Shown here piece after piece: positions 2 to 24,927 of a stretch of 48,874 nucleotides of DNA (positions within the stretch are counted from its first letter, which is position 1; each line of letters opens with the position of its first letter). The notes under the pieces are model-generated. The model was given only the letters and a program-made list of their open reading frames with translations, had not been told where the DNA came from and did not search any database. Both the position numbers and the translations under genes were made by a program. Origin of the DNA: Verrucomicrobiota bacterium (GTDB lineage Bacteria; Verrucomicrobiota; Verrucomicrobiia; Limisphaerales; UBA9464); the NCBI GenBank assembly GCA_017309115.1, contig JAFLEF010000056.1:1-48874 (forward strand). Reading direction: 5' to 3'.

Positions 2-1312
2 CAATGCCCATTTCCCCGATTATCAGCATGTTTGAGGACCTTACGCGGCAAAATCCCGGTGCCGGCTGACTCCTACCGGAATTTCAAACCGCCAGGATCT
101 CACCAATTTCACGCCGCCGCCCACAGCATTGTCGCCCTCCTCCTCGAACTGTTCCGGAACGAGAAGAATTTCGGTGGACTCTTCGTGGATGCCAAAGGGG
201 TCCTCCATGAAGTAATTCTGGAAGTCGCCCGCAACGAGGGCCGGGCTAATGACGTCGTGCTTTTGGAAGTCGGCCCCAATCCCCGTCAGCGCTTTAACCT
301 GGTTGGAGATCGTCGGATTCCGTTCGCCACGTTGGCCCAGTGTGTCGTGGATACGGCGTCCGCAATGGGGAATCGCAACGAGCAAAGCTTCTTTAGGAGT
401 GCGGCTCAGATTCACATCGCCAAAGCCCTGGAGGCGCTCCACGAGGCCGGCTTCCCGGTTACCCTCGAGAATGCGCACAACCTCTTGGTGAATGCCTCCG
501 ATACTAAGCGGGCCTTGGCACTTCTTAAGTCACCCGGACTCATCGAGCATTTCCAACAATACCTCGCGCAACCTCCGGAACAGTTGGCGGGTGTCACGGG
601 TACCGTTCAGAACTACCTCCACTACTTCACGTCACCCGAAATCGCCGAAGTGTTTTGTCGGGACTCCACCTTCGAACTCGACCACGTCGACCAGGGGAAG
701 TTGATCTGCCTTTCAATGCCGCAGCGCTACCAGACTGAACGCCGGTTCGTCGGTACCTTTCTCAAACTACTATTCTTCAATCACGCTCTCGCCCGATTTG
801 ACGCCGCCAAGAAGGTTCGTGACGCCCACAACTTGCTCGTATTGGTGATCGACGAGTGCCAGCACTTCGTCACGACCAGCGAACATGGAATGAGCGACCA
901 CAATGTCATCGACGTGGTCCGCGAGGCTAAACTCGCCGTAATCGCCGCGACGCAGAGCACCACGTCGCTCTTGCCGGTCCTCGGTTTGGATCCGTCCCGG
1001 GTCTACACGCTGAACATGCGCAACCGCCTAATCTTTACCGCGGCGGATGAACTGGACGCCCAGGCTAGTGCCGAATTCATCGGCAAGGAGTCGGTTCGAA
1101 AGGTGAGTCGCACCGTCCAGGGAGGCCGGGAATCGAAGTCGGTATCCGACGCGGACGAATTCCGAGTAAAGCCCCACGTGTTGAAAGGGCTGCGGAATCA
1201 CCACTGCCTGCTCGTCCACTCGGAGGACGGATTTCGCAAAGTGGTCCTGCCGCCGCGTGAGGCCAATGGGTCCGTTTCGCGATGGTATCGGTGGCGTTGG
1301 TTCCGCCGCTGA
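2..1312 (+). CDS. VirD4/TraG-like type IV coupling protein, 5' end cut by window edge
   Basis: The frame is open to the left edge, so the gene probably begins outside the window; an internal TTG at 32 is the first possible start inside it. The remaining protein looks like the ATPase domain of a conjugative coupling protein, which pumps relaxase-bound DNA to a type IV secretion channel. Visible are a GLFVDAKG segment typical of the strand after the P-loop, a Walker B stretch LVIDECQHF (about nt 846-872) and an ATQST sensor-like motif near nt 948. Where the P-loop should lie, just before HAAAHSIVALLLEL (nt 98-120), the sequence reads GSHQFH and lacks the lysine of GxxGSGKT. The other two forward frames also give plausible protein for the first 30-65 bases, so a frameshift is possible. 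It lies 92 bases before the relaxase gene, the usual pairing. Family fairly sure; functionality doubtful. Confidence 0.7.
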   Translation, partial: QCPFPRLSACLRTLRGKIPVPADSYRNFKPPGSHQFHAAAHSIVALLLELFRNEKNFGGLFVDAKGVLHEVILEVARNEGRANDVVLLEVGPNPRQRFNLVGDRRIPFATLAQCVVDTASAMGNRNEQSFFRSAAQIHIAKALEALHEAGFPVTLENAHNLLVNASDTKRALALLKSPGLIEHFQQYLAQPPEQLAGVTGTVQNYLHYFTSPEIAEVFCRDSTFELDHVDQGKLICLSMPQRYQTERRFVGTFLKLLFFNHALARFDAAKKVRDAHNLLVLVIDECQHFVTTSEHGMSDHNVIDVVREAKLAVIAATQSTTSLLPVLGLDPSRVYTLNMRNRLIFTAADELDAQASAEFIGKESVRKVSRTVQGGRESKSVSDADEFRVKPHVLKGLRNHHCLLVHSEDGFRKVVLPPREANGSVSRWYRWRWFRR

Positions 1313-1326
1313 AGCCGCTACGAAGT

Positions 1327-1343
1327 CCCTATCGAAGATAGGG
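1327..1343. promoter_or_regulatory. Short hairpin between coupling-protein and relaxase genes
   Basis: CCCTATC and GATAGGG form a perfect 7-bp inverted repeat with a 3-base loop, in the 92-base gap just before a MOBF relaxase gene. Such a gap can hold an operator or part of a transfer origin. No T-tract follows, so it is not a classic terminator. The role is not proven by the sequence. Confidence 0.3.
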
Positions 1344-1404
1344 GTTGGTGTCTGGCGGATTTTGGGTTTCTGCCTCGTGGATTTGGGAACTTTGAGACGC
1401 TGTT

Positions 1405-4062
1405 ATGTTTACTGCTCGGGTGATGAAAAACTCGGAGACGGCCAAAAGGTACTACACGGAACATCTGGCCAAGGCTGAGTACTATTCAAACGGTAGCAAG
1501 GTTGGGGTGGAATGGTTCGGGCTGGGGTGTACGCGGCTGGGATTGGAGCCAGGTTCCAAGGTAACCCAAGAAGCGTTCGAACGGCTGTGCGACAACCTAC
1601 ACCCGCAGACCGGAGAGAAACTCACGGTCCGTCACCGCTCCAACGACCGCCGAGTGTGTACCGACTTTGTAAACTCAACCCTCAAGTCCGTCTCGATCAT
1701 GGCCCTACTTGCTGGCGATGCCCGTATTCTTGATTGCCACGAAGCCGCCACGCACACCGCCATGATCCAGTTGGAAAAGCGAGCTAGCACCCGGGTTCGA
1801 AAAGGTCGACTGGACAGCGAGCGGCGAACCGGCGAATTGGTCGCCGCCCGGGTCACCCACCTCGAATCGCGCGCACTAGATCCCCAGATTCATTCCCATC
1901 ACGTGGTTTTCAATGCGACCTGGGATCCAGTGGAGAACCGCTGGAAGGCCCTACAGACGACTGAAATCTTTGAACAGTTGGGTTTTTTTACCGAGATCTA
2001 TCGAAGCGAACTAGCCCAGCGCCTCAAGGCTATTGGCTACCGACTGCGCCCGACGGACAATGGGTTTGAGATTGCAGGGGTGCCCGAGGAAATCATTCAG
2101 CGCTTCAGTAAACGCCGTAAGGCGATTCTGGAGGCCGAGGCCGAAGTCTCCCAAGAACTCGGGCAATCTCTCTCCAACAACGCGCGGGCTACTTTGGCGC
2201 AGACCACTCGGGACTGGAAGGATCTGACCCTCAATCCCGAGGAGATCCACCAGTACCAACTCAGCCAACTGACCGCCGAGGAGTTGGCCACACTGCAACG
2301 CCTCGTGCCGCCAAATGTTTCGACTCAGGTGGCCCCGCCAGGAGCGATTACCGAAAAGGTATCCCATCCGTCGGTCTCCGCGAAGGGGGCGGTTGACTTT
2401 GCCCGAGACCACCTTTTCGAACGGAAGAGCGTGGTGCCCCTCTACGCCTTTCACCGAGAGGCCCTGGCCTTCGGGCATGGCGACCTCACCCTCGAAGAGG
2501 TTGAGGAAGAAATGGCCGGACGAACCGAGTTTTTGGAGTTCGAGGGAAACCTGACGACCCACGAAATGATCCAACGGGAGCAGGAAATGCTCAAATTGGT
2601 GAATGCTGGAATGGGTCAATTCGCCCCCCTCAATGTCACTGCCCGGCCGGACTCCAACCTTAAAGCGGAACAAGTGGTTGCCTTAAAGGCCGTGCTCAAT
2701 TCGCCCGACTGGGTCACGGGTATTCGCGGCATCGCAGGCTCAGGCAAAACCGAACTCCTGAAGGCGCTCACTCAGGGCATTCAAGCGAGCGGAAGGCAGG
2801 CGGTCGTGCTGGCGCCCACCAGTGCCGCTTGCGGCGCCCTGCGAGACCGTGGTGTTTCGCGGTCATCCACTTTGCAGAACTTTCTGGCGAACCCCGACTT
2901 TCAGAAAGATTCCCGCGATGCCGTCCTGATCGTGGATGAGGCGGGCCTGCTGTCCGTCGGCGACACGCTCCAATTGCTGAAAGTGGCGCAAGCGGGGAGA
3001 TGTCGTGTGGTGTTGTGCGGCGATACCGGGCAGCACACCGGAATCGAAGCCGGGGATGCACTACGACTTTTGGAAGAACGCAGTGCGATGCAATCCGCCG
3101 GATTGCTCCGCAACCACCGTCAGCGGAATCGCGACTACCGAGAGGCAATTCAAGCCTTCGCCGAAGGAAAGGCAACGGAGGGCTTGTCTCGACTCGACGC
3201 CCTTGGTGCCTTGCACGAAGTAGACTCAGAGAATCCCTACGAAGGCTTAGTGGCGAGCTATCTGAAGTCGGTGAGTCGCGGCAAATCGTCCCTAATTGTT
3301 AGCCCAACGTGGCGGGAAATCACCCAGGTCACCGAAGCGGTTCGGGCCGGACTAAAGGACAGCGGCCGACTGGATCCAAAGGATACGGACGTCGTCGCCC
3401 ATACCTCTCTTCACTGGACCCGCGCCCAAAAGCGCGACCTGCGCAATTACCGAGAGGGGATGGTGCTCCGGTTTCACCGAAGCACTGCCACCGTGTCCCG
3501 GGGGGCAAGCCTGACGTTCACACGCCTTGATGGCGGCACTCTCATTGCCACAAGCGCGCAAGGCAGCGAAGTCAGGCTCACCGGCAAGCAGGTCGGCTGT
3601 TTCGATGTTCTGAAAGTTGGAACGATTCCGGTGAGCGCGGGTGAAGTTCTGCTCGTGCAGGCCAATCAGAAATCCCACGGACTCATCAATGGCCAAAGCG
3701 TCCAGGTCAGCGCCGTTCGACCCGACGGCAGTCTCGACCTGGCCGATGGACGAACCATTCCGCCCGAGTTTCGCACCTTCACGCATGGCTACTGCGTCAC
3801 AAGCTTTGGCGCTCAAGGCCGAACCGTGGACCACGTCTTCGTTGCCGTGGGAGCCGAGTCGATGAACGCGGCGAACCTGAATCAATTCTACGTCAGCGCC
3901 TCCCGTGGTCGGGAGCAAATCCAGGTCTACACGGACGACCTCAAGGAACTTCGGGGCGCCGTTCGTCGGCGAGGCCACCGGACGGCGGCGGTGGAATTCG
4001 CGGAAAAGACGGCGCTGCGTAATTCCCAATCGGCGCACCAGGCGGTAGCCATGAAGCTTTAA
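1405..4062 (+). CDS. MOBF-type conjugative relaxase/helicase (TrwC/TraA-like), copy 1
   Basis: 885 residues. The N-terminal relaxase nicks the transfer origin and stays covalently bound to the DNA; the C-terminal SF1 helicase unwinds it. Paired tyrosines lie at residues 16-17 and 26-27, as expected for MOBF catalytic tyrosines. The histidine metal site appears as DPQIHSHHVVFN near residue 162. The helicase half has GSGKT at about 445-449, a Walker B VDEA near 510 and a late helicase motif around GYCVTSFGAQGRT followed by ASRGR. Length and domain order match TraA/TrwC proteins without the extra C-terminal domains of F TraI. The N-terminal segment (VNSTLKSVSI) departs slightly from the usual APKSVS motif. 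The ATG at 1405 puts the tyrosines in register with the second relaxase at 11390. It follows a coupling protein and precedes a small conserved gene by 4 bases. Confidence 0.92.
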   Translation: MFTARVMKNSETAKRYYTEHLAKAEYYSNGSKVGVEWFGLGCTRLGLEPGSKVTQEAFERLCDNLHPQTGEKLTVRHRSNDRRVCTDFVNSTLKSVSIMALLAGDARILDCHEAATHTAMIQLEKRASTRVRKGRLDSERRTGELVAARVTHLESRALDPQIHSHHVVFNATWDPVENRWKALQTTEIFEQLGFFTEIYRSELAQRLKAIGYRLRPTDNGFEIAGVPEEIIQRFSKRRKAILEAEAEVSQELGQSLSNNARATLAQTTRDWKDLTLNPEEIHQYQLSQLTAEELATLQRLVPPNVSTQVAPPGAITEKVSHPSVSAKGAVDFARDHLFERKSVVPLYAFHREALAFGHGDLTLEEVEEEMAGRTEFLEFEGNLTTHEMIQREQEMLKLVNAGMGQFAPLNVTARPDSNLKAEQVVALKAVLNSPDWVTGIRGIAGSGKTELLKALTQGIQASGRQAVVLAPTSAACGALRDRGVSRSSTLQNFLANPDFQKDSRDAVLIVDEAGLLSVGDTLQLLKVAQAGRCRVVLCGDTGQHTGIEAGDALRLLEERSAMQSAGLLRNHRQRNRDYREAIQAFAEGKATEGLSRLDALGALHEVDSENPYEGLVASYLKSVSRGKSSLIVSPTWREITQVTEAVRAGLKDSGRLDPKDTDVVAHTSLHWTRAQKRDLRNYREGMVLRFHRSTATVSRGASLTFTRLDGGTLIATSAQGSEVRLTGKQVGCFDVLKVGTIPVSAGEVLLVQANQKSHGLINGQSVQVSAVRPDGSLDLADGRTIPPEFRTFTHGYCVTSFGAQGRTVDHVFVAVGAESMNAANLNQFYVSASRGREQIQVYTDDLKELRGAVRRRGHRTAAVEFAEKTALRNSQSAHQAVAMKL

Positions 4063-4465: not shown

Positions 4466-5359
4466 TCAGTCGGCGGCTCGTTCGCTCAACGCGGATTCCG
4501 GTTCTCCATCCGTCTCCACGGGCACCTTTCCTCGGATGTAGTCGGCAGCTTTTTGAGCTGCCGAAGCGGCGCGAAGCAGAATCCGACTATTCTTCTGAAA
4601 GACTCGGGCCCATCCGGCCACATAGCTTTCCTGCAGTTGTTCGATCCCGGGATTCCGGATCCCACAGAATCCGCAGAGAAAGGCGGCGCCAATTTCGGCG
4701 ACTAGCTCCTCGAATGAGTACTTCTCAATCCGACTGCCTCCCTCGCGACTGAACCGGTCCAATCGGGTTTGATGACCCGTGGCGTGACAGAGTTCGTGAA
4801 AGAGGGTCGCGAAATAGGCGTCAGCACTCTCGAACTGCGAGAGGTGGGGCAGCAGAACCCGGTCGGTATCGCCATGGTAGGCGGGCTGATTTCCCAGTCC
4901 GTGCGATACCTCCGGCTTGTTGGGCATCACGCCGAGCAACTGATCGGCAATCTCCAGGCGCTCGTGGCCGTGGTGAAGCACATCGTTCTTCGGTCGCTCC
5001 ACGCCTTCAATCTGGTCAAGATTGAAGACGCTGCTCGTAAAGGGGATGCATCGAGCCACCCGCTCGCCCTTTTGTTTGGCCGCTTCGAGTTCAATCTGAG
5101 TTCGCCACTTCCAGTAAACCACAGGAGTCGCTTTCTCTCCTTTGCGAACATGGCCGCCCAAGCGAAGAGCCTCGCGAAACGTAAGCCAAAACCGGGAGCT
5201 GTAGTCGCTTAATGAAAGGGCGAGGATGTTGATTCCTCGGTACTCTCGGCCTGTGGATAGGCTCGCCGGAAGCCCGGTTTGCCAAGTTCGGTGCCACGGC
5301 GCGTGGCCATTCTCCAACTGTGCCAGGATTCGATCGGTGATGGTCTGATAAATGGTCAT
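4466..5359 (-). CDS. ardC: ArdC-like antirestriction protein, copy 1
   Basis: 297 residues from ATG at 5359, preceded by GGAG at good spacing; an upstream in-frame start at 5443 would add a tail encoded by the conserved leader and is less likely. The N-terminal domain (YQTITDRILAQLENG..PWHRTW...YRGIN, then GGHVRKGEKATPVVYW) is the ssDNA-binding ArdC/DUF1738 domain. The C-terminal half is a zincin-like metallopeptidase with HELCHATGH near residue 190 and a downstream glutamate in EELVAEIGAAF. ArdC proteins protect incoming plasmid DNA from restriction during conjugation. It is preceded by the structured leader at 5402-5633, shared with the gene at 16635-17195. A second ArdC lies at 20424-21470; the two are clearly diverged. 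Confidence 0.9.
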   Translation of the reverse strand: MTIYQTITDRILAQLENGHAPWHRTWQTGLPASLSTGREYRGINILALSLSDYSSRFWLTFREALRLGGHVRKGEKATPVVYWKWRTQIELEAAKQKGERVARCIPFTSSVFNLDQIEGVERPKNDVLHHGHERLEIADQLLGVMPNKPEVSHGLGNQPAYHGDTDRVLLPHLSQFESADAYFATLFHELCHATGHQTRLDRFSREGGSRIEKYSFEELVAEIGAAFLCGFCGIRNPGIEQLQESYVAGWARVFQKNSRILLRAASAAQKAADYIRGKVPVETDGEPESALSERAAD

Positions 5360-5401
5360 GGTCAATTCTCCAAAGTTCGCCCTCCTTTCCCCGAAAATGA
5401 A

Positions 5402-5633
5402 TTCCCCGGGGAGGAGGGGTGTTTTCACTTGGCCTTGAAACACCCCACCTCCTTAGGGAACTAGTCTCCCTACTGCCAGACCGTCGGTCTGACCATTTCT
5501 CCTCTTGCGGCGGAGTCGGTGGGGGAAGAAGTGGGGACGGCCAGGAACAGCAACCGCCGTGACGGGCTCTGCTGGCACCAGGTTACCCTGGCCCTCCCCG
5601 CGCCCAGACCGTGCAGCCTAGAGAGAAAGGCTG
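5402..5633 (-). ncRNA. Candidate structured leader RNA, copy A (upstream of ardC)
   Basis: On the minus strand, from far to near the ardC start: a small hairpin (CAGCC/GGCTG arms at 614-618 and 629-633 of the 5 kb block); a 20-nt block at 5557-5576 with 18 of 20 bases identical to copy B; a hairpin AGACCG/CGGTCT at 5478-5490; and a long imperfect hairpin at 5402-5460 whose inner stem is GGGTGTTT/AAACACCC with outer arms TTCCCY/GGGGAA. It ends 42 nt before the start codon. Spacing between the small hairpin and the 20-nt block is 66 nt here and 65 nt in copy B. Sequence between the blocks is diverged while stems are retained, which favours RNA structure. The CCTCCTCC arm could pair with the downstream GGAGG. 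RNA status is inferred. Confidence 0.6.
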
Positions 5634-9713: not shown

Positions 9714-11303
9714 ATGTTCTCTTTCAAATGGATCATCATTGCTTTGAGCGGTCTCTGTGGCGTGTTGATCACGGCGGTTTGGTGGCGGCGAACTCGAAAA
9801 GGCCGAGTTCCCATTTCCAGTGCCCATTTGCGCGGTCGTTTCCTGCGACAAGCGAGCGAAGTCGAAGGCAATCTGAAGGCTGAGATAGAGGGGATTGGTC
9901 TTCGCTTCGGGCGGTTCCAATTTCCAGCGCGGGCGGCCCACGGCCATTTCGCCTGTGTGGGAGCCACCGGCAGTGGCAAGACGATGATTCAGCGATTGCT
10001 GATGCAATCGGTCCTGCCGGGAATCGGGCGGGGACGCGGCAGTCGGGCGCTGATCTACGATGCGAAGCAAGACCTGCTTTCCATCCTCGCCGGGATGAAG
10101 CTGTCATGTCCTGTTCGGTTGTTTCACCCACTTGATTCCCGGGGGACCGCCTGGGATTTGGCTGCGGACATCACTTCCCCAGCGTCGGCCTTGCAAATGG
10201 CGAGCCTCCTCATTCCGCGCTCCGATCGGGACACCAATCCTTTCTTCACGAATGCAGCCCGACATCTTCTTTTTGGAGTTCTTCTCCAGTGCATACTCCG
10301 GGTTCCGGGCGAGTGGAGCTTCCGGCAGGTCCTCCTGATTCTGCGGGACACCCAACTGCTTCGGCTCATCCTGGATTTCTCCGAGGAGACACGACACCTG
10401 CTCCAGTATTGTGCCCACGAGGGAACCTTTCAAAACATCGTCTCCACGCTCCTTACCTATATCGGGCCGTACGAAATTGTCGCGGCCGCCTGGGACCGGG
10501 CGGAATCTCGGCTAGGCCTCCAAGCGTGGTTGCAGGAGGAATCTATTCTGGTCCTCGGTAATGACGAGGCGAACCGGGTCGCCATCGACACCCTGAACCG
10601 AATGGTCTTCCAGCGGTTGACCGAACTGATCCTTGGTCAGAACGAAGTGACCCCGACCAATCCCCGACAGACCTGGCTCTTCCTGGATGAGATTCGCGAG
10701 ATGGGACGATTGGAGGGACTCTCCCGGCTTTTGACCAAAGGGCGCAGCAAAGGGGTGGCGGCGGTGCTCGGATTCCAGGATGTCGCGGGTCTACATAACG
10801 TATACGGTCGCGATGTGGCCGAAGAGTTACTGGGTCACTGCAATTCCAAGGTGATTCTCCGGCTCAACAGTCCCGGCACGGCCAAGTGGGCCTCGCAGTT
10901 GTTTGGAACCCGAGAGGTCTTGGAGCGCTCAAGAAATCTCAACCGCAGCCGTTCTTCCCGGAATTTGGGTTTCGATTTCTCCGCCAGCAGCGGGGAAGCG
11001 ATTTCCAATGGTATCACGAAACGAGACGTCGTTCTGGAATCCGAGTTTCTCGATCTTCCCGAATCGACTCCGGAAGGGGGGCTCAGCGCCTACTTCCTGA
11101 ACCCCCTTACCGGAGGGTTTCGCGATCATCTTCCTGGTGACTGGATCCGCACCCATTTGGTACCGCCGGATCGACGCGTGCCGGATTGTATGCCGCGGTC
11201 GGATTCCGACCAGTATCTGCGCCCCTGGGACGAGAGTGACTCTCTTCTGTTCGGTCTCTCGGAGTCGCCCGCTAAAGTCTGTTCGAATTCCAGAGAGGGC
11301 TGA
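9714..11303 (+). CDS. Type IV coupling protein (VirD4/TraD-like), copy 2
   Basis: 529 residues from ATG at 9714 (GGTGGGGG upstream). One N-terminal membrane helix (residues 4-22, IIIALSGLCGVLITAVWW) anchors it, shorter than the two helices of classical VirD4. A perfect Walker A, GATGSGKT, lies at residues 82-89, followed by ALIYDAKQDLL, and Walker B FLDEIRE lies near residue 322. GFQDVAGL fits the sensor motif. The C-terminal region is relatively short and ends in an acidic stretch. Coupling proteins recruit the relaxosome to the secretion channel. It lies 86 bases before the second MOBF relaxase, making a complete mobilisation pair, unlike the copy at 2-1312 whose P-loop is missing. No type IV channel genes are in the window. 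Confidence 0.88.
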   Translation: MFSFKWIIIALSGLCGVLITAVWWRRTRKGRVPISSAHLRGRFLRQASEVEGNLKAEIEGIGLRFGRFQFPARAAHGHFACVGATGSGKTMIQRLLMQSVLPGIGRGRGSRALIYDAKQDLLSILAGMKLSCPVRLFHPLDSRGTAWDLAADITSPASALQMASLLIPRSDRDTNPFFTNAARHLLFGVLLQCILRVPGEWSFRQVLLILRDTQLLRLILDFSEETRHLLQYCAHEGTFQNIVSTLLTYIGPYEIVAAAWDRAESRLGLQAWLQEESILVLGNDEANRVAIDTLNRMVFQRLTELILGQNEVTPTNPRQTWLFLDEIREMGRLEGLSRLLTKGRSKGVAAVLGFQDVAGLHNVYGRDVAEELLGHCNSKVILRLNSPGTAKWASQLFGTREVLERSRNLNRSRSSRNLGFDFSASSGEAISNGITKRDVVLESEFLDLPESTPEGGLSAYFLNPLTGGFRDHLPGDWIRTHLVPPDRRVPDCMPRSDSDQYLRPWDESDSLLFGLSESPAKVCSNSREG

Positions 11304-11389
11304 GAATGACCAAGGAATCTATTCTTCAATTCCGAAAATCCCGATCCACACACCACGCATTAAACTGCTTTCTATTTTGGAGTTAGAAG

Positions 11390-13813
11390 TTGCTGTCGAT
11401 TTCTAAACCCATCCGTGGCTCCGACCAGGGTGAATACTACCTCTCCCTAGCCTCGGTCGACGACTACTACCTCGACGGCAAGGAGCCTCCAGGATTCTGG
11501 CTCGGCAAGGGCGCCAAGGAACTGGGACTGACCGGGCTCGTTGCCCCTGAGGAATTCCGCAATTTGTTTCGCGGGTTCAGCCCGGACGGCACCATGGCTC
11601 TGGTTCATAACGCCGGTTCACCTCGGCGGAGGGCCGGATGGGACGTGACCTGGAGCGTCCCCAAGTCGGTGTCCACCGTATGGTCCCAAGCGGATGAAGG
11701 TACGCGCCAGGAGATTGAGACCGCCGTCAACGCCGCCGTCCGAGAGGGGGTTGGTTACCTCGAAACCATTGGGATGGTCTCGCGCCGCGGCGAGGACGGG
11801 GTCATTCGGGATCAGGCAAGGCTAGTCTTTGCCGCCTTCCCCCATTCGATAAGTCGTCTGCAAGATCCACAATTGCATGTACATACGATCCTGATGAATC
11901 TCGCTGTTCGTCCGAACGGATCCACCGGCACCATTGATCCCAAGGAACTCTTCCGTCACCAACATGCGGCGGACGCCCTGTTCCGGGCGGAATTGGCCGC
12001 ACAGTTGGAGAAGCGCTTGGGTCTCCTGGCAGAGCGTGAAGGCCGCGCCTTTGAACTGGCGGGCGTTGACCGGGCACTCATGGCCACGTTTTCGAAACGA
12101 CGCCAGGAGATCGCTGCCGTGCTTTCCGGACGTGGACTTTCCGGAGCCAAGGCCGCCGAGATCGTGGCCTTTGAGACTCGGACGAACAAGAAAGCGGTCG
12201 ATCGCCAGACCCTGTTCACCGAATGGCGGAAGATCGGTCTCCAACATGGCTGGAGCACCGAGCAGGTCGACGAATTGATCCGCGCGCCTTTGGGTCCCCG
12301 GAATCGCGCCAAGGAGTATCAACGCACGGAGGTTGAAGCGCTGAATCGGCTGACCTTGCACGACAGCCATTTCGCTTGGCGCGACCTCACGCGTGCTTTG
12401 GCGGACGAGTCGCAGGGACGAGGTCTGGGAGCTCAGGATGTTTACGCCCTCCGGGACACTATCCTGCAAACCCGGAAAGTAATCCTGATCGGACAGAAAG
12501 ACCGGGAAGCTCGGTTTACGACCCCTGAGATGCTGGAGATCGAACGGCGGTTTCTGGCAGCATCGAGACAACTTCACGGAGACGCGCGTCCCGTCTCAAA
12601 AGTCGAATCGCTTCAGGAGAGCCTTTTGAATCAACACCCGACCTTGTCGGCGGAGCAGCGGGCCGCGGTCCTGACCGTGACGGCGTCGCAGGGCGGGCTC
12701 CAGCTGGTGGCCGGAATGGCCGGTACCGGAAAGTCGTTTGCCTTCGGAGTTGGGAAGGAGATCTGGGAAGCGCAGGGCCTGGAGGTTTTTGGTGGTTGCT
12801 TGGGTGGCAAGGCGGCTGCCGGTTTACAAGACGGCAGCAAGATTCCCAGCCAGACGCTACACCGTCTCTTGTGGGGGATTGAACACGGCGTTATCCAACT
12901 CAGCTCGCGCTCGGTTGTGTTGGTCGACGAGGCCGCCATGGTCGGCACGCGGCAACTTTTGGAGCTGACCTCCCGATGCTTGGCGGCCCGGGCCAAGCTC
13001 GTGCTGGCGGGTGATTTCGGCCAACTCCAGTCGGTGGAGGCGGGTGGGGGATTCGCGGCCCTGATTAAGGAATTCGGCGCGAGCAGCCTAACTGAGATTC
13101 AGCGCCAACGTGAGGAGTGGGCCCGAGCGGCAGTAAAGGACTTTGCAGCCGGTCGGGCCGAGCAAGCTTTAGACGCCTACGAACGCCGCGGACTGCTCCA
13201 CTGTGAGACGGAGCCGGAAAAGGCCGCGCTTGCGTTGATCGCCCGGTGGAAGACCTCCGCTCCGCCCGATCCTTCGGACCAGGTCATCTTGGCGGGAACC
13301 AATTCGGAGGTCGCTCGACTCAACGCGCTCGCCCAGCAGCAGCGCCTCGCGGCCGGAACTGTTTATGGAGAGCCAATCCCGATTGGGGAGGAGAAGGTCT
13401 ATGTCAATGACCGCATTTTGTTTACGCGGAACAGTCAGTCCCTCGCAGTCTTCAATGGGGAAGTAGGAACCGTCACGGAACGCCAAGGAAATCAACTCAC
13501 TGTGGCGATGGAAAACGGGCGGTCGGTGTCCGTAAACGCGAGCGAATACCCCCATCTACGCTTGGGGTACGCGTTGACGACCCACAAAGCCCAGGGAATG
13601 ACCGTTGAACAAGCATTCGTCTTGACCGGACCGATGCAGAACCGGGAGCAAACCTACGTGCAGGCATCACGAGCGCGGGGCAACACCGAGTTCTTCCTCG
13701 GGACTGAGGATCTTCAGCGAACCGCTGAACGCATGGCCCGCAGTCAGCCCAAGGAACTCGCCAGTGAACTCGGGGCGGCCGGACCGGAGCTGGAGTTGGC
13801 GTTAACCCGGTAG
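11390..13813 (+). CDS. MOBF-type conjugative relaxase/helicase, copy 2
   Basis: 807 residues from TTG at 11390, with GGAG eight bases upstream. Paired tyrosines lie at residues 16-17 and 26-27 (GEYYLS and DDYYLD), in the same register as in the relaxase at 1405. DVTWSVPKSVSTVW is the canonical relaxase motif, and LQDPQLHVHTILMN near residue 161 supplies the metal-binding histidines. The helicase half has GMAGTGKS at about 443, VLVDEAAMV near 510, and GYALTTHKAQGMT followed by ASRARG. The helicase motifs fall at almost the same residue numbers as in copy 1 although the sequences differ widely, so the two are ancient paralogues or independently acquired. The gene pairs with the coupling protein just upstream. 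Confidence 0.93.
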   Translation: MLSISKPIRGSDQGEYYLSLASVDDYYLDGKEPPGFWLGKGAKELGLTGLVAPEEFRNLFRGFSPDGTMALVHNAGSPRRRAGWDVTWSVPKSVSTVWSQADEGTRQEIETAVNAAVREGVGYLETIGMVSRRGEDGVIRDQARLVFAAFPHSISRLQDPQLHVHTILMNLAVRPNGSTGTIDPKELFRHQHAADALFRAELAAQLEKRLGLLAEREGRAFELAGVDRALMATFSKRRQEIAAVLSGRGLSGAKAAEIVAFETRTNKKAVDRQTLFTEWRKIGLQHGWSTEQVDELIRAPLGPRNRAKEYQRTEVEALNRLTLHDSHFAWRDLTRALADESQGRGLGAQDVYALRDTILQTRKVILIGQKDREARFTTPEMLEIERRFLAASRQLHGDARPVSKVESLQESLLNQHPTLSAEQRAAVLTVTASQGGLQLVAGMAGTGKSFAFGVGKEIWEAQGLEVFGGCLGGKAAAGLQDGSKIPSQTLHRLLWGIEHGVIQLSSRSVVLVDEAAMVGTRQLLELTSRCLAARAKLVLAGDFGQLQSVEAGGGFAALIKEFGASSLTEIQRQREEWARAAVKDFAAGRAEQALDAYERRGLLHCETEPEKAALALIARWKTSAPPDPSDQVILAGTNSEVARLNALAQQQRLAAGTVYGEPIPIGEEKVYVNDRILFTRNSQSLAVFNGEVGTVTERQGNQLTVAMENGRSVSVNASEYPHLRLGYALTTHKAQGMTVEQAFVLTGPMQNREQTYVQASRARGNTEFFLGTEDLQRTAERMARSQPKELASELGAAGPELELALTR

Positions 13814-16634: not shown

Positions 16635-17195
16635 TTAGTCAGGCGCTACCAACACCGCCACTTGCGAACCCAATTTCACCTCGGCCACGGTCCAAGAAGG
16701 TGAGTCCAGAAATCGGTCCGTATCGAAAATCAACCCGTCGCAGGGAGTGGATTCCCACGCCCGGTAAAGCTCTGGATAGTATAACTCAAACAACTCGAAA
16801 GCGGCCTCCCGTCGGACATCCATAAAGTTGTCGCCGAGGAAGCAGGAAGGAGCCCGATCCTGGACGCCTTCCGCCTTCAGTTCCCCCAAGTTTCCCCCTT
16901 GGATGTTCACCGCAAAGTAGACCGCCAGATAATTCTCCACCGTCTCCCCACCGAGTTCCTCCAAGAGATCGGAAAGCGCCAGCAATTCAGCGGCGGTCAC
17001 CGAGCTTTGTCCCTCGAAAATGGCGGATATCTCCGGTTTGTTCCCGGTAGGCCAGAATTCCGCCTCGCCCTGACGGTCGTGATTCCAGTCAACGACTTGC
17101 TGGGCACTCAAGGTGTGTTCGAGGGCGGATTGGCTCCGAAAGTTAAAGCCTTCGAAGTGGCCAAAGTCGTACGAGATGGTTTGGGTCTGATTCAT
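16635..17195 (-). CDS. Conserved protein of unknown function with structured leader
   Basis: 186 residues from ATG at 17195; GGAGG lies five bases upstream, and the longer frame from 17579 would run through the conserved leader and is rejected. Recognisable blocks: YDFGHFEGFNFRSQ at the N-terminus, LSDLLEELGGETVENYLAVYFA in the middle, and FMDVRREAAFELFELYYPEL..W, CDGLIFDTDRFLDSPSW near the C-terminus. The repeated conserved acidic and aromatic residues suggest a compact enzyme- or inhibitor-like fold, but no known catalytic motif is visible. It shares the structured leader with ardC, which suggests a common regulator and perhaps a linked role in plasmid establishment. Antirestriction is a guess from context only. 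Confidence 0.6.
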   Translation of the reverse strand: MNQTQTISYDFGHFEGFNFRSQSALEHTLSAQQVVDWNHDRQGEAEFWPTGNKPEISAIFEGQSSVTAAELLALSDLLEELGGETVENYLAVYFAVNIQGGNLGELKAEGVQDRAPSCFLGDNFMDVRREAAFELFELYYPELYRAWESTPCDGLIFDTDRFLDSPSWTVAEVKLGSQVAVLVAPD

Positions 17196-17232
17196 GTTTT
17201 CCTCCTGTTTTGCCATCCTCCCCCCAAGAAAC

Positions 17233-17458
17233 ATTCCCCGGGGAGGAGGGGTGTTTTCGCTCGGCCTTGAAACACCCTGACTCACCGGGGAATGAATCGT
17301 CTCCAGCCCGTACGGGCTGTCCGCAGAGTCCATCCGGGCGCAGACGACACGTCCGAACGGAACCAAAGCGTCCATGAGCAAGACCGTGACAGGCCCTGCT
17401 GGCGCGGGCATGCGGAGGCGGCGGTTCCGTTCAGTGACGCGCAGCCCGACCAAAGGGC
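17233..17458 (-). ncRNA. Candidate structured leader RNA, copy B
   Basis: Homologous to the leader at 5402-5633 and in the same orientation, 37 nt before the start codon at 17195. It has the long hairpin at 17233-17293 (inner stem GGGTGTTT/AAACACCC, outer arms ATTCCCC/GGGGAAT), the small hairpin AGCCCG/CGGGCT at 17305-17318, the 20-nt block at 17384-17403 and a distal hairpin AGCCC/GGGC near 17443-17458. In the small hairpin the third pair is A-T in copy A and C-G here, a compensatory change. The right arm of the long hairpin differs from copy A yet still pairs. The arm CCCCTCCTCCCC could bind the downstream GGGGGAGG, giving a translational on/off switch. RNA nature is inferred. Confidence 0.6.
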
Positions 17459-17570
17459 CACGGCCGGACTGGGCCGTGACGGTGGAATGGAAGAACTCGC
17501 TGGAAATGCAGAGTTTTAGGCACAATGCGACCTGTTGCGGTAAGGCGGTGGGTTGTGGTAGGATAAAGTC

Positions 17571-18982: not shown

Positions 18983-19345
18983 TCAGTAGTCTTCCGGCAG
19001 CAGAATGGTGGTCACTGACCGGTCCGCTTCGGTGATGATCCAATAGGTGACTCCCGCCTGAGTTCGGTAGGCCGACAGAATGCGGGTCCCTTCCTGGAGC
19101 GCTTGGTCGTTGGCCGCGCGGTCTGTAGAGTCCACGTTTCCCCAGTCTCGGTTTCGGTGACGTTGCAGTCCTTGGAGGATTTCCTCTGCGGATACTTGGG
19201 AGAGCGCATTCGGGGTCGCCACGATCTGGCCCAGCGGGACGCCCGGGAGCTGGACTCGCGGAACGAAGCGCAACTGGTCGATCGAACCGTTCGGCGGCAC
19301 GGCGGCCGGTTCCCTCCCGGGGTTGCTGAAATCAGGTGCGGCCAT
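18983..19345 (-). CDS. Conserved plasmid-associated protein of unknown function
   Basis: 120 residues from ATG at 19345, selected because GGAGG lies seven bases upstream. The C-terminal part, RHRNRDWGNVDSTDRAANDQ then EGTRILSAYRT, G..YWIITEADRSVTTILLPEDY, is a well-conserved block that I recognise from small proteins of plasmids and integrative elements across several phyla; no function is known. It is divergent from the integrase gene at 19463 and may share a promoter region of about 115 bases with it. Confidence 0.7.
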   Translation of the reverse strand: MAAPDFSNPGREPAAVPPNGSIDQLRFVPRVQLPGVPLGQIVATPNALSQVSAEEILQGLQRHRNRDWGNVDSTDRAANDQALQEGTRILSAYRTQAGVTYWIITEADRSVTTILLPEDY

Positions 19346-19462
19346 GGTGGTTCCTCCCACTTAGTTCATATCCCAAAAAGCAGTTGGATCGCAAGGGGCG
19401 GACCGGTTGGCCCCCTGGCGCAGACTCCACTATCCGTGAGAGGATGGTCGGAGGAGGACAGG

Positions 19463-20440
19463 ATGGGAGCAGCGGAGACACCGGCAATCGCGGCGAGGGT
19501 TTGTTCGGACCGGCGGCTCACGCAGCCAGAGTTTGAGGCGCTCAACCGAATCCCCCACTTCCTCGAATGGCTGGCCAACCTGCCCAATCCCAACACCCGC
19601 CGTGCCTATCAGGCCGATTTGGTGGGTTTCATGCGCTTCGTCGGACTGGCTCAACCCGAAGAGTTCGCGCGCGTCACCCGCGCCCATGTCATCGCCTGGC
19701 GGAAGGATCTCGAACGGCAGGCGCTGCAACCGGCCACCATCCGGCGGCGGCTCTCCGCTGTGTCGGAGTTATTCGAATTCCTCTGTGAGGAGAACAGTGT
19801 CGACCGCAATCCCGTTCACGGTGTGCGCCGTCCCAAGGAGGGCGCCAACGAGGGCAAGACCCCGGCTCTGGCGGACGCGCAGGCCAAGCGCCTGCTAAAT
19901 GCCCCAGATGCCTCCACCCTGAAGGGTCAGCGGGACCGAGCGATCCTGGCGGTGCTGCTCTATCACGCGCTGCGCCGGAGCGAGCTGTGCCGACTCCGGG
20001 CCAAGGACTACGAGGTCCGGCGCGGGGTGCCGACCCTGGCGGTTCAGGGCAAGGGTTCCCGGCTTCGTTACCTACCGATCCATCCCCTCGCCGCCTCCCT
20101 GATTGAAGACTACTTGGAGGCCGCGGGGCACCGCGAGGACCTCGAGGGCGCCCTATTCCGGCCCGTGCGTAATCCCGGCGGAACACTGGAACGGCCCCTG
20201 ACCGGCCAGGCGATCTACCGCAATGTCGTCAAACACCATGCCCTCGCCGCGCGCATCCCGGTCCGCTCCATCCGTCCCCACTGCCTGCGGGCCACCGCCG
20301 CCACCAACGCCCTGGAGCATGGGGCGGACATCGCCAAGGTTCGGGACTGGCTCGGGCACAGCACCATTTCCACGACCCAGCTCTATGACAAACGGCGTCA
20401 CCGACCCGAGGATTCACCGACCTTCAAGGTGGAGTATTGA
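19463..20440 (+). CDS. XerC/D-like tyrosine recombinase
   Basis: 325 residues from ATG at 19463, with a strong GGAGGAGG upstream; the frame opens further 5' but that part is the opposite-strand gene. Has the SAM-like N-terminal domain (PNPNTRRAYQADLVGFMRF) and the catalytic domain with R in HALRRSELCRL (about 170), K in QGKGSRLRYL (about 197), H-x-x-R in RPHCLRATAA (about 273-276), H in LGHSTIS (about 297) and Y in TQLYDKR (about 306). A complete recombinase of plasmid multimer-resolution type. It lies beside the partition genes, and its 3' end overlaps the convergent ardC copy by 17 bases. Chromosome integration is an alternative role. Confidence 0.9.
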   Translation: MGAAETPAIAARVCSDRRLTQPEFEALNRIPHFLEWLANLPNPNTRRAYQADLVGFMRFVGLAQPEEFARVTRAHVIAWRKDLERQALQPATIRRRLSAVSELFEFLCEENSVDRNPVHGVRRPKEGANEGKTPALADAQAKRLLNAPDASTLKGQRDRAILAVLLYHALRRSELCRLRAKDYEVRRGVPTLAVQGKGSRLRYLPIHPLAASLIEDYLEAAGHREDLEGALFRPVRNPGGTLERPLTGQAIYRNVVKHHALAARIPVRSIRPHCLRATAATNALEHGADIAKVRDWLGHSTISTTQLYDKRRHRPEDSPTFKVEY

Positions 20441-21470
20441 GGGGACCCTCGGTCGGGCCACCAGGAGCTGGGGCAGGCCAGCGCTCGCCCCTCATCTCCG
20501 GAGCCTGACCCAAGATGTAGTCTGCGGCCCGCTGCGCCTCACTGGCGGCCTTCACGAGCCACGTCTTGTTGTCCTTCGCCTGCAGGACCGAGAGCCAGCC
20601 TTGCAGGTAAGCCGCAGAATTCTCAAAACCGTCTTCGATGATGCCCGCATGGGCGCCCAGAAAGGCCGCGGTCATTTCGGCCACCAGTTCCTCCAGACAG
20701 TAGATTTTTCGGGCCTCGCCGACGGCAGAGGCTCCGCGGTTGTCCACCAGCGACGGACGGTTCAGTCGCTCTTGGTGCCCCGTCGCATGCGCCAGCTCGT
20801 GAAAGAGCGTCTTGTAGAAGCGCCACTCGGCCCGGAAGGTCTCCCGGCTCGGCATCTCCACCGTGTCCGTATCCGGCACGTAATGAGGATACGACTTACG
20901 CCCTTCGTGAATCCGCGGTGGCCGGGGCATCGCGGCGACGATGTGGCGGGCGTTGTCGGCTAGCTCACTTTCCGCAAACGTCGCGCAGGGCGGCACTTCG
21001 GGAAAGACGAGGCCGTCGATCTGGCACGCGTTGAATACGGTGTAGAGTTTCAGGAACTTTCGCGACTCTACCGAGAGCGGGGCCAGACCCACTGCGGCGG
21101 CGTCACTCTCGCGTTCCCGACTCCAGGTGCCGACCTTGACGATGGGGAATCCCGTTTCTCCCTTTCGCACCGTCCCGCCCAGGTCTTTTGCCTGGAGAAA
21201 GGTCAGAAAGTACGGGGACTGGAATTCGTGGAGGCCCAGTAAGAATACGTTGATGCCGCGGTAGTGCTTCTGGGTGGCGAAGTTTCGGGGAAATCCCGTG
21301 CGGGCGATGGAGGGAGATTGCCACGGAACAACCCCGTTCTCCATCCGTTCCAGAATTCGGCGCGTCACCGTCTCGTAAACATCCCACCGAACCTGCCCCT
21401 CCGCTTTCGGCAAACTGGCCGCGGCCAGAGGCACCGGGATCTTGCCCCGCGCCCGTTCCATCTGCTCCAT
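20424..21470 (-). CDS. ardC: ArdC-like antirestriction protein, copy 2
   Basis: 348 residues from ATG at 21470, which has GGGGAGGGGGG upstream; a start at 21515 would add 15 residues. The N-terminal ssDNA-binding domain (YETVTRRILERMENGVVPW, KHYRGINVFLL, GGTVRKGETGFPIV) and the metallopeptidase domain (HELAHATGH near residue 223, then CLEELVAEMTAAFL) are both intact. The C-terminal tail is proline-rich. It overlaps the integrase by 17 bases on the opposite strand. It lacks the leader found at 5402 and 17233, so it is probably regulated differently. Confidence 0.9.
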   Translation of the reverse strand: MEQMERARGKIPVPLAAASLPKAEGQVRWDVYETVTRRILERMENGVVPWQSPSIARTGFPRNFATQKHYRGINVFLLGLHEFQSPYFLTFLQAKDLGGTVRKGETGFPIVKVGTWSRERESDAAAVGLAPLSVESRKFLKLYTVFNACQIDGLVFPEVPPCATFAESELADNARHIVAAMPRPPRIHEGRKSYPHYVPDTDTVEMPSRETFRAEWRFYKTLFHELAHATGHQERLNRPSLVDNRGASAVGEARKIYCLEELVAEMTAAFLGAHAGIIEDGFENSAAYLQGWLSVLQAKDNKTWLVKAASEAQRAADYILGQAPEMRGERWPAPAPGGPTEGPLNTPP

Positions 21471-21665
21471 CGCTCCCCCCTCCCCGGCGCTCAGGATATC
21501 ACGCCCGGTCTCCATCCGGAAAGGGGCTGAATTCTCCCGAAAACCTCTTTTAGGGGGGGACGGGCGGACTTCGACGGGACGAGGCCCGTTCCGAAGAGGC
21601 TTCTGCGCTCCGGGGCCGCGCGGCCCGATTATTCAGAGGGTTAGGGAGTGATCCCGTCACCGGGG

Positions 21666-23158: not shown

Positions 23159-24571
23159 ATGGAGCACGAAAAACCGGAGGTGCCGCGGCCGCAGGACGGC
23201 AAAGACGAACTGAATCTGGCGGAGTTTCCTCTCTCGGCTATTGCTGATCGGCTTGATCCGAAGCAGAAGTCCCTGGTTTTCGAGGATCGCGTGTGGGACC
23301 GGAACCGGGGTGATTTGGTCACCCGCCAATTACTCATCACCGCCGCCGAAGAGTATGGCTTGCCCACCGCCCTCGACGACGAGGTCATTCTGGGATTGGT
23401 TCAACTGTCTCGGCTCCACGGGTTCGCCGAACGGCGCGTTCCCTTTACCCGCTACCAACTGATTCAGCTCTTGGGCTGGCGCGACGAATCCAAGAGCTAC
23501 CAGCGCATCGAGAAGTCGCTGAACCGGTGGATCGGCGTAACGCTCTACTACCAGAATGCCTGGTGGGACCGGGAGGGCCAATGCTGGGTCGACGAGAAAT
23601 TCCACCTGCTCGACAACGTGACCCTCTTCGACCGGGAAAAGTATTCGCACCGGAACCGGGTCCAAACGCCGCTACCGATCTCCAGCTTTACCTGGAACGA
23701 AGTGGTCTTCCGTAGCTTCCGCGCGGGCAATCTCAAGAGCCTGGATTTCGACTTCTTCAAGCGCTTGGAAGGAGCCGTCGCCAAGCGGCTCTACCGGTTT
23801 CTCGACAAACGCTTCTTCCATCGGCCGCGCTGGGAATTTCATCTCCAGGAACTGTGCTGGGAACACGTCGGACTCGCCCGTTCGTATGATGCGGCCAACC
23901 TCAAGCGGAAGCTCCGACCGGCGATCAAAGAACTTGAGCGTCACCAATTCATCCGACCGGCATCGGACACGGAGCGCTTTCGAAAGGTCAGCTCCGGCAA
24001 ATGGCGGGTTTTCTTCGAGCGGGCGGGCAGGGGAGTCGCCAAAGTTCTGGCGCCACCCTCGAATACCGACGCCCTTTGCCAGGCCTTGATCGACCGGGGA
24101 GTAACTCGCTCCACGGCCCTCGAAACGGTCGAGAAGTTCCCCAGAGAGCAGATTGAACATCAGTTGGAGGTCTTCGACTGGCTGCTCAATCGCAAGGACT
24201 CCCGACTCCTCCGCAATCCCGCCGGTTACCTGGTGAGCGCCATCCGGAGTGAGTACGTCGCACCCCAGGAATTCACCGCACGGCGCGAGCAGGCCGAGCA
24301 AAAGGCTCGGTCTGAAGAGCTCGATCGACGACGACAGGCACGGATCGTACGCGAACGGGCTCGGGAGGAACTGAAACTCCAAGTCCGTCGACAAGCGGTC
24401 GAATCCTTCTGGTCGTCGTTCTCGCAAGAAGAACGGGATCGACTGGAAACTGAGTGTCTCCACGGGGCTAACTCCTTCGAACGTTCTCTGTTGAAAAAAG
24501 GAGGGACCCTCGGAGCTGCGACTCGAGAGAAACTATTCGAGGAATTCGCGTTGAAGAGTTTAGCGGGATGA
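23159..24571 (+). CDS. repA: Plasmid replication initiator RepA (RPA family)
   Basis: 470 residues from ATG at 23159 after GGGAGGGAAG. Matches the replication initiator protein A family: long winged-helix N-terminal half (LITAAEEYGLPTALDDEVILGLVQLSRLHGF, then WIGVTLYYQNAWWD), a second block ending in FHRPRWEFHLQELCWEHVGLARSYDAANLKRKLRPAIKELE, then a basic coiled segment near residues 380-420 (ARREQAEQKARSEELDRRRQ) and an acidic-hydrophobic tail. It binds the six iterons just upstream and starts replication. A degraded second copy lies at 43895-44797. Confidence 0.9.
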   Translation: MEHEKPEVPRPQDGKDELNLAEFPLSAIADRLDPKQKSLVFEDRVWDRNRGDLVTRQLLITAAEEYGLPTALDDEVILGLVQLSRLHGFAERRVPFTRYQLIQLLGWRDESKSYQRIEKSLNRWIGVTLYYQNAWWDREGQCWVDEKFHLLDNVTLFDREKYSHRNRVQTPLPISSFTWNEVVFRSFRAGNLKSLDFDFFKRLEGAVAKRLYRFLDKRFFHRPRWEFHLQELCWEHVGLARSYDAANLKRKLRPAIKELERHQFIRPASDTERFRKVSSGKWRVFFERAGRGVAKVLAPPSNTDALCQALIDRGVTRSTALETVEKFPREQIEHQLEVFDWLLNRKDSRLLRNPAGYLVSAIRSEYVAPQEFTARREQAEQKARSEELDRRRQARIVRERAREELKLQVRRQAVESFWSSFSQEERDRLETECLHGANSFERSLLKKGGTLGAATREKLFEEFALKSLAG

Positions 24572-24927
24572 GGGGGAGAAAAAAGCTCAGGAAGCCGAAT
24601 TTGATTTGACGCCTGAAACGGTTCTGTGGATTCCTATAAAAACATAAGGCGTTGTACGGCCTCTTTCTTAGGCGACAACCCAGTGACCTCTAACTCAGGT
24701 CCTTCCCCGTTCCTGGCGGCTGCGCCTATATCCATCGGAGATTGGATTAATGCAGACAGGACCGTGGAGTTATCCATTCACCCGAATAATAACTGCATAC
24801 GCAGAATATCCAATCCTGATTATCTGGATGAACTCTCGGCCCTTTTTTGTTTCATGACGGCATCCTTGGCGCCGCACTAGTAACCTTATCGACTCATCCA
24901 TCTTCAGATCGAAATCCACGAACTTCT
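24572..24927 (+). other. Leader region of the giant secreted protein
   Basis: 356 bases without a supported gene. A short open frame (24626-24880) has no domain or ribosome-binding site and is probably spurious. The AT content rises relative to repA. This segment should hold the promoter of the gene at 24928. Confidence 0.4.

What the first reader, a model, noticed from the sequence alone, without database searches (positions are those of the whole stretch)
5402..5633. Twin structured leaders before two unrelated minus-strand genes, with matched spacing and compensatory changes
Copies at 5402-5633 and 17233-17458 precede ardC and a gene of unknown function. Shared order: distal hairpin, 20-nt block (18 of 20 identical, CCGTGAC..GCTGGC), 65/66-nt spacer, small hairpin with A-T to C-G pair change, GTCTCC, long hairpin with inner stem GGGTGTTT/AAACACCC and apical CAAGGCCRAGYGA. 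It ends 42 and 37 nt before each start. Sequence between blocks is diverged. This is the strongest undescribed signal in the window.
Basis: partly seen in the sequence, partly recalled or inferred. Interest (0 to 1): 0.85.

Follow-up and report, generated by a model that had tools for sequence, protein, structure and literature searches.

The report
Hairpin control elements of incoming plasmids
Two look-alike folded DNA stretches in front of two plasmid genes turn out to belong to a family not found in the RNA-family library, which sits before the genes a conjugative plasmid probably needs first on entering a new cell, and it may be a new kind of switch for reading those genes from incoming single-stranded DNA.

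Summary
The twin leaders are real and belong to a family. Covariance models found 31 copies in 16 of 321 genomes of the order (Verrucomicrobiota). Of these, 30 lie directly before a gene of one of four families: ArdC, RadC, an acidic ~190-aa orphan (the gene behind W2), and a ~92-aa protein also present in R388's leading region; the 31st runs off its contig. Stems co-vary above shuffled and slid controls. No Rfam family matches, and the leaders are not coding. Most host contigs carry TrwC (MOBF) relaxases. An F/R388-like oriT motif was found on 13 of 22 leader-bearing contigs, including the window at about 1351. On all 13 the inferred transferred strand runs toward the leaders and is the template strand of their genes (one contig has a second, opposite site). 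The 'two unrelated genes' are therefore probably leading-region establishment genes. No sigma-70 promoter stands out in 29 leaders tested. Best reading: a cis element for early (zygotic) expression that acts on the incoming T-strand, analogous to Frpo/ssi but without its -35/-10 boxes, so not a member. Main rival: an RNA-level terminator/insulator like EGeRS1 of pLS20. Mechanism unproven.

The parts
5401..5461 (-). W1 long hairpin H3 (outer stem, mismatch zone, GC-rich middle, inner stem GGGTGTTT/AAACACCC)
   Evidence: covariance hit (E 1.3e-12; W1 was among the sequences the model was built from)
5477..5491 (-). W1 small hairpin H2 (CAGACC-gac-GGTCTG)
   Evidence: compensatory changes
5533..5599 (-). 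W1 distal hairpin H1
5559..5578 (-). W1 conserved H1 tip block GTGCCAGCAGAGCCCGTCAC
5380..5392 (-). W1 G-rich segment able to pair with the 3' arm of H3 (alternative helix H4)
4466..5359 (-). ardC, the gene behind leader W1
   Evidence: Pfam ArdcN 1.5e-30 and MPTase-PolyVal 2.7e-28
17232..17294 (-). W2 long hairpin H3
   Evidence: covariance hit (E 1.1e-10; W2 was among the sequences the model was built from)
17304..17319 (-). W2 small hairpin H2 (CAGCCC-gtac-GGGCTG)
17355..17432 (-). W2 distal hairpin H1 (GAACGGAACC...GGTTCCGTTC)
17386..17405 (-). W2 conserved H1 tip block GCGCCAGCAGGGCCTGTCAC
17213..17225 (-). W2 G-rich segment able to pair with the 3' arm of H3
16635..17195 (-). acidic 186-aa orphan gene behind leader W2 (pI 4.2; family here called FEGFNF)
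   Evidence: no Pfam, NCBIfam, PADLOC or PDB match; relatives; pI
1327..1351 (+). oriT-like hairpin plus GGTGT, inferred nic at about 1351; T-strand would run rightward toward W1 and W2
   Evidence: nic position by analogy with F and R388, not shown
1405..4062 (+). TrwC (MOBF) relaxase next to the oriT-like site
   Evidence: Pfam TrwC 5.5e-72
32..1312 (+). coupling protein gene (TrwB/TraD-like), near the contig start

Best explanation
The twin leaders are two copies of a cis-acting establishment (zygotic-induction) element carried by MOBF conjugative or mobilizable elements of Verrucomicrobiota. When the plasmid enters a recipient as single-stranded T-strand, which is the template strand of the leader genes, H1-H3 fold. 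The long hairpin H3, whose base lies about 42-56 nt before each start codon, then offers a local double-stranded platform from which transcription of that gene starts. Once the second strand is made the hairpin is taken up into duplex and expression stops. Shown: the family, its covariation, its fixed place before a recurring set of genes, no sigma-70 promoter that stands out. Inferred from motif homology: oriT and T-strand identity. Inferred without direct evidence: transcription initiation from the folded strand, and what polymerase or factor reads it.
For: 31 copies, 30 before one of four gene families, one off a contig end. Covariation (type II alone). oriT-like sites on 13 of 22 leader contigs, T-strand = template on 13 of 13 (four of the 13 helped to define the motif). 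The same rule finds the F site, and with GTCT in place of GTGT the R388 site, each with one further match in the record scanned; their ssb, psiB and ardC-type genes lie on the side and strand expected. The ~92-aa gene family lies in R388's leading region with the same orientation. No sigma-70 promoter stands out in 29 leaders: best scores mean 8.0 against 8.46 for block-shuffled sequence, 5 of 29 above their own shuffles, and none by the scan tool in three regions. W2's upstream neighbour is divergent, so its promoter should lie in the leader interval. A.C (= G.T on the template) exceed G.U 21 to 8 by cluster-site, P 0.024.
Against: No -35/-10 pair can be recognised in the 3' arm of H3; Frpo has them. 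Both strands fold about equally well. H2 loops read C(UNCG)G on the RNA in 13 of 19 type-I copies, mostly close relatives: a stable RNA motif, but C(GNA)G on the template is a stable DNA motif (both recalled), so they do not decide. Many A.C mismatches cluster at one recurrent junction and can shift register, so the strand test is weak and its P value flattering. The outer stem also shows U.G cells. Two of the five covariation measures are not striking (pairs changed on both sides 6 against 4.2, 45/500; further pair types 13 against 11.2, 60/500). One contig (L061) has a second oriT-like site pointing the other way. Window relaxase module 2 and contigs G026:C68 and G025:C206 gave no GGTGT site. 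In the window and three relatives the relaxase gene lies between the inferred nic and the leader, an unusual order. Relatives of the W2 gene in nine further loci show no match to the element models.
Confidence: 0.5

Rival explanations
1. RNA-level control: the leader is the 5' part of a transcript and H3 with the T-rich run behind it is a terminator or insulator, as the EGeRS1 repeats of pLS20 block readthrough. The alternative helix between the 3' arm and the downstream G-rich segment would be the anti-terminator state.
For: T-rich run after H3 in many copies and short terminator-like calls at its base in W1 and W2, though the scan expects 0.6-0.7 such calls by chance. The 3' arm pairs better with its own downstream segment than with swapped ones: P 0.0003 over 15 groups, 0.0125 when stratified by subtype, 0.024 in type I alone, 0.18 in type II alone. 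EGeRS1 precedent (PMC8708921). C(UNCG)G loops in 13 of 19 type-I copies.
Against: No promoter upstream that would make the RNA stands out. W2 has a divergent neighbour, so there is little readthrough to block. No G.U excess over A.C. The pairing test is not corrected for phylogeny.
Confidence: 0.3
2. Single-strand initiation site: the hairpins prime complementary-strand synthesis on the T-strand, and gene expression is secondary.
For: Same T-strand placement. F's Frpo is described in the title of its paper as serving both transcription and primer RNA synthesis (reference seen).
Against: A copy before each gene or gene pair, its base 42-56 nt before a start codon, argues for gene expression; priming alone needs no such spacing.
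Confidence: 0.1
3. Protein-binding or recombination repeat: a double-stranded operator, or a homology block that lets establishment genes be shuffled like cassettes.
For: Leaders are homogenised within a plasmid: leaders A1-A2 92% with genes 59%, while genes A1-B1 are 93% with leaders 82%. Relatives L110 and L119 instead carry a palindromic promoter-like sequence.
Against: Compensatory changes keep pairing while the sequence changes, which a sequence-specific operator does not need. I saw no integrase-site boxes by eye but did not test it formally.
Confidence: 0.1

Closest known systems
Frpo / ssi single-stranded DNA promoters of F and ColIb-P9
   Same: Hairpin DNA upstream of leading-region establishment genes; T-strand is template; several copies per plasmid; before SSB, SOS-inhibitor or anti-restriction genes (PMC9849209 and PMC11541004, passages seen).
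   Different: No recognisable -35/-10 or A+T-rich UP element; GC-rich stems; W2 has no sequence match in the plasmid collection; different phylum; three-hairpin layout with a conserved H1 tip in type I.
EGeRS1 repeats of pLS20 and pBS72 (PMC8708921)
   Same: Repeated, highly structured sequences without a detected promoter, immediately upstream of the RBS of ardC and other establishment genes (passages and sections 3.4 and 4.1 seen).
   Different: EGeRS1 is 400-750 bp and its transferred strand is the non-template strand (paper); here the leader is about 230 nt and the inferred transferred strand is the template.
radC (RF01754) and STAXI candidate structured RNAs (PMC2864571)
   Same: STAXI lies near SSB, topoisomerase, anti-restriction and integrase genes and the paper discusses a possible single-stranded DNA role (passage seen); radC is a candidate RNA named after one of the gene families met here.
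   Different: radC is listed for Proteobacteria and STAXI is described as repeated pseudoknots; no Rfam match to radC or any other family here. STAXI itself was not compared.

Membership tests
Frpo/ssi ssDNA promoter | lies upstream of leading-region establishment genes | tested here: met
   30 of 31 copies before ArdC, RadC, FEGFNF or ~92-aa genes, one off a contig end; oriT-like sites placing them on the inferred leading side on 13 of 22 contigs
Frpo/ssi ssDNA promoter | T-strand is the template strand | tested here: met
   13 of 13 contigs with a site, by motif homology, nic not mapped; L061 has one extra contrary site
Frpo/ssi ssDNA promoter | hairpin rebuilds -35 and -10 boxes | tested here: not met
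   best pairs on average below shuffled sequence in 29 leaders; matches in the H3 3' arm weak
Frpo/ssi ssDNA promoter | sequence similarity to known Frpo/ssi | tested here: not met
   no match for W2 (17200-17480) in 72,556 plasmid records, blastn E 0.01; W1 and the other copies were not searched
Frpo/ssi ssDNA promoter | transcription from single-stranded DNA | not testable with these tools
   needs in vitro transcription or mating assays
EGeRS1 | structured repeats directly upstream of RBS of ardC and other establishment genes | tested here: met
EGeRS1 | no constitutive main-sigma promoter | tested here: inconclusive
   none stands out by consensus scan; not tested by reporter
EGeRS1 | transferred strand is the non-template strand (as in pLS20) | tested here: not met
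   template strand on 13 of 13 contigs with a site
EGeRS1 | blocks readthrough | not testable with these tools
   needs reporter fusions
Rfam families incl. radC RF01754 | score above gathering threshold | tested here: not met
   whole window, 0 matches; relaxed, 3,701 and 461 bases, sub-threshold hits only, none to radC
Integron attC sites | R'/R'' boxes recognised by IntI | not tested
   only looked at by eye

The most novel reading that the evidence does not exclude
A strand-state switch: the same hairpin set silences the gene in double-stranded plasmid DNA (terminator-like H3 in any readthrough RNA) and starts transcription only on the incoming single T-strand, through a promoter without sigma-70 boxes read by another sigma factor, a carried-in polymerase or a plasmid protein. 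It would be a single-stranded promoter class unrelated in sequence to Frpo, in a phylum for which my literature searches listed none.
Probability: 0.25. Interest if true: 0.85.

Novelty: new variant of a known kind. Interest (0 to 1): 0.66.

Why it matters
Single-stranded promoters explain how plasmids express anti-defence genes before they are double-stranded, but the well-studied ones (F, ColIb-P9) come from enterobacterial plasmids and rely on canonical boxes. A covarying, box-less element with an inferred T-strand orientation makes the question 'what does a polymerase need to start on folded single-stranded DNA' testable in another phylum. The models also work as a locator: they pick out probable leading-region genes, among them two orphan families that are good anti-defence candidates.

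Tried and rejected
Protein-coding repeat: rejected; the leader frame relative to the gene is spread 9/12/9 over 30 copies (the anchor was found by pattern and is clearly displaced in four of them).

Rfam family: rejected.

Element outside the order: the class search used R1 only (384 genomes, many of them of the same order) and returned only copies already known. The phylum search used R2 only (387 genomes) and gave, besides the window's genome, three weak hits (E 1.5e-4, 4.4e-4, 3.2e-3) that are unrelated by context. The order search with R2 gave three more false hits at E 0.012-0.045. So hits weaker than about E 1e-4 need gene context. Twelve rows in each order search are the same hairpins read on the other strand.

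First DNA search: besides the true copies it listed hits at E 0.005-0.08 in seven other genomes. G050 and G027 were looked at and have no such hairpin; the hits in the other five were dropped without inspection.

Nine further loci with the orphan gene family have no match to R1 or R2; seven of them were read upstream. L120 and L121 have a different large hairpin abutting the ATG, L122 has several hairpins, L110 and L119 a palindromic promoter-like sequence, L123 a TTGACA-TACAAT pair, and L111 an ordinary terminator-like hairpin upstream.

Strand test by folding energy: contradictory (RNA favours sense in 18 of 25, DNA favours template in 17 of 25).

First H4 script misparsed W2; repeated correctly. 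First oriT counting script was faulty for stems over 5 bp; repeated. The oriT rule was written after seeing the alignment of four upstream regions, and the AGTGT variant in L058 was accepted because it aligns there.

Structure prediction of the W2 protein had not finished at the last of eight look-ups; nothing from it is used.

They changed the H2 loop count (13 of 19) and confirmed by Pfam the PIN and antitoxin genes, one RadC and G241's coupling protein. 

Full report
WHAT IS THERE. A repeat search pairs 5389-5460 with 17221-17292 (72 nt, 81%). Each has a distal hairpin H1 with a 20-nt tip block, a small hairpin H2 and a long hairpin H3 that ends 42 (W1) or 37 (W2) nt before the start codon. 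Folding is better than shuffled as RNA (z -3.6 and -3.1) and as DNA on either strand. The window is a whole 48,874-base contig of a 7.53 Mb genome. It carries two TrwC relaxase and coupling-protein modules, two ArdC genes, RadC, ParA, ParB and an RPA-type replication gene, so it is a conjugative or mobilizable element, possibly a fusion of two.

THE FAMILY. A first DNA search of 51 genomes of the same family found arrays of the same element in two relatives, G014 and G026. A covariance model of H2+H3 (R1, built from eight copies) searched over 321 genomes of the order gave 25 sense-strand hits at E <= 0.05 in 15 genomes. All 25 are accepted, because each lies before a gene of the four families. 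A second model on a divergent subtype (R2, seven copies) added six more accepted copies, two of them on another contig of the window's own genome, plus three false hits. Total 31 copies, 16 of 321 genomes, six families. Class (R1, 384 genomes) and phylum (R2, 387 genomes) searches found none outside the order, with one model each and the stricter filters.

WHAT IT STANDS IN FRONT OF. Read by hand: 12 copies precede the FEGFNF orphan family (the W2 gene), 10 a ~92-aa protein ending in LLPEDY-like residues, 4 ArdC and 4 RadC (one with a broken frame, G033); one runs off its contig. Pfam was run on W1's ArdC and on one leader-borne RadC, G000c; the others are assigned by resemblance. In G014 and G241 several leader-gene units lie in a row between coupling protein (Pfam) and relaxase genes; G026 has the same layout with an unscanned 681-aa frame in the coupling-protein place. 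The ~92-aa family is found by tblastn on 165 plasmid records, including R388, where it lies at 19210-19554 between oriT and ssb/ardC.

COVARIATION. On 25 copies, with a structure predicted from the same alignment, 96.2% of cells pair; 27 cells change on both sides against 7.5 shuffled (0/500); the covariation score is 0.277 against at most 0.120 for slid partners. The counts of pairs with such changes (6 against 4.2, 45/500) and of further pair types (13 against 11.2, 60/500) are not striking. In the seven type-II copies alone the score is 0.204 against 0.129 shuffled, 0/500, and pairs changed on both sides 6 against 2.6, 2/500. The inner stem switches as a unit from GGGTGTT/AACACCC to GGAGGAGTT/AACTCCTCC. 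The H1 tip also shows compensated variants (CAGC/GCTG, CAGG/CCTG, CAAG/CTTG, CGGC/GCCG) among the 16 of 19 type-I copies that have it (read by eye). The relatedness of the copies is not corrected for.

WHICH STRAND ENTERS FIRST. F and R388 carry, before the nic, a perfect hairpin and 8-9 nt ending GGTGT^ or GTCT^ (sites read; that the nic lies there is recalled). After an alignment of four regions upstream of relaxases showed the same layout, I scanned with the rule 'hairpin of 5-9 bp, loop 3-4, 8-9 nt, GGTGT'. It gives 13 sites in 452,632 bases. All are on leader-bearing contigs, but only 39,882 of the bases scanned come from other contigs, so this is no strong control. With one AGTGT variant (L058), 13 of 22 leader contigs have a site; 10 of the 13 lie within about 450 nt upstream of a TrwC relaxase (positions). 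G004:C615 and G033:C45 were not scanned, and some other contigs only in part. Fourteen of the 16 genomes have a TrwC match and 14 of the 22 leader contigs carry a strong one, G003:C20 a weak one. In the window the site is at 1327-1351, between coupling protein and relaxase. On all 13 contigs the strand that would be transferred runs toward the leaders and is complementary to their genes, so it is their template, as for ssb and psiB of F and ardC and ssb of R388. L061 has a second site of opposite direction. Window module 2, G026:C68 and G025:C206 gave no GGTGT site. In the control records the rule also found one extra place in the 14-kb F stretch and one in R388.

PROMOTERS AND SPACING. In 29 leaders no -35/-10 pair stands out: mean best score 8.0 against 8.46 for block-shuffled sequence, 5 of 29 above their own shuffles; the best single match (A2) overlaps the start of the gene. 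The scan tool finds none in three regions. The W2 gene's upstream neighbour is a divergent antitoxin/PIN-toxin pair starting at 17571, so its promoter should lie in the leader interval. H3's GRAA patch lies 42-56 nt before the start codon in 30 copies and the leader frame is not conserved.

RNA OR DNA. Symmetric pairing of H3 gives 21 cluster-sites with A.C and 8 with G.U on the sense strand (P 0.024 against equal; strongly against a 4:1 G.U excess, a ratio I assumed). A.C on the sense strand is G.T on the T-strand, so this leans to the T-strand, but many sites are one recurrent junction near the base of H3, and RNA-based alignments show U.G in the outer stem. H2 loops fit stable motifs on both strands. 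I treat this as open. The 3' arm can also pair with the G-rich segment behind it; own pairs beat swapped ones (P 0.0003; stratified 0.0125; type II alone 0.18), which suggests a switch but is not phylogeny-corrected.

LITERATURE. PMC11541004 and PMC9849209 (passages): Frpo promoters rebuild -35/-10 on the T-strand and drive early leading genes. PMC8708921 (passages plus sections 3.4 and 4.1): EGeRS1 repeats before ardC and other establishment operons of pLS20 show no promoter activity in the tests made, block readthrough, and lie on the wrong strand for a single-strand promoter. PMC2864571 (passages): radC and STAXI candidates. Seven searches (only listings seen beyond the papers named) listed no description of this element; the library is partial.

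VERDICT. A real, covarying element family tied to probable plasmid establishment genes. It works most like a single-strand promoter, fails the -35/-10 test for being Frpo, and shares its place but not its strand with EGeRS1. Mechanism at about even odds.

Noticed in passing
window 11250-11450: Second TrwC relaxase module (11390-13813 +) has no site under the oriT rule; an F-like GTGGTGTGTGG on the minus strand near 11350 with only a weak inverted repeat may be its nic, pointing the other way.
   Followed up: partly
window 18983-19360 (-): A ~92-aa-family gene (by eye) without any leader found by model R1 in the window; a second ArdC gene at 20424-21515 (-) likewise has none.
   Followed up: partly
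window 23681-23980 and 43901-44200: 300-nt direct repeat, 86% identical, the first copy inside the RPA-type replication gene; with two relaxases and two ArdC genes it suggests two fused replicons.
   Followed up: no
window 24847-36735 (+): One open frame of 3,962 aa, not examined.
   Followed up: no
L020, L021 (G014, G026): Leaders evolve in concert within a plasmid while the genes behind them do not (leaders A1-A2 92% with genes 59%; leaders A1-B1 82% with genes 93%).
   Followed up: partly
L110 and L119, upstream of the ~92-aa or orphan gene: A shared A+T-rich palindromic sequence (ATTRTCATTGAGACATG) in place of the hairpins, like an operator-promoter; the same genes seem to have two control strategies, as EGeRS1/EGeRS2 on pLS20-type plasmids.
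   Followed up: partly
L120 and L121, upstream of the orphan gene: A different long hairpin whose outer stem abuts the start codon, not matched by either model; may be an analogous, unrelated element.
   Followed up: no
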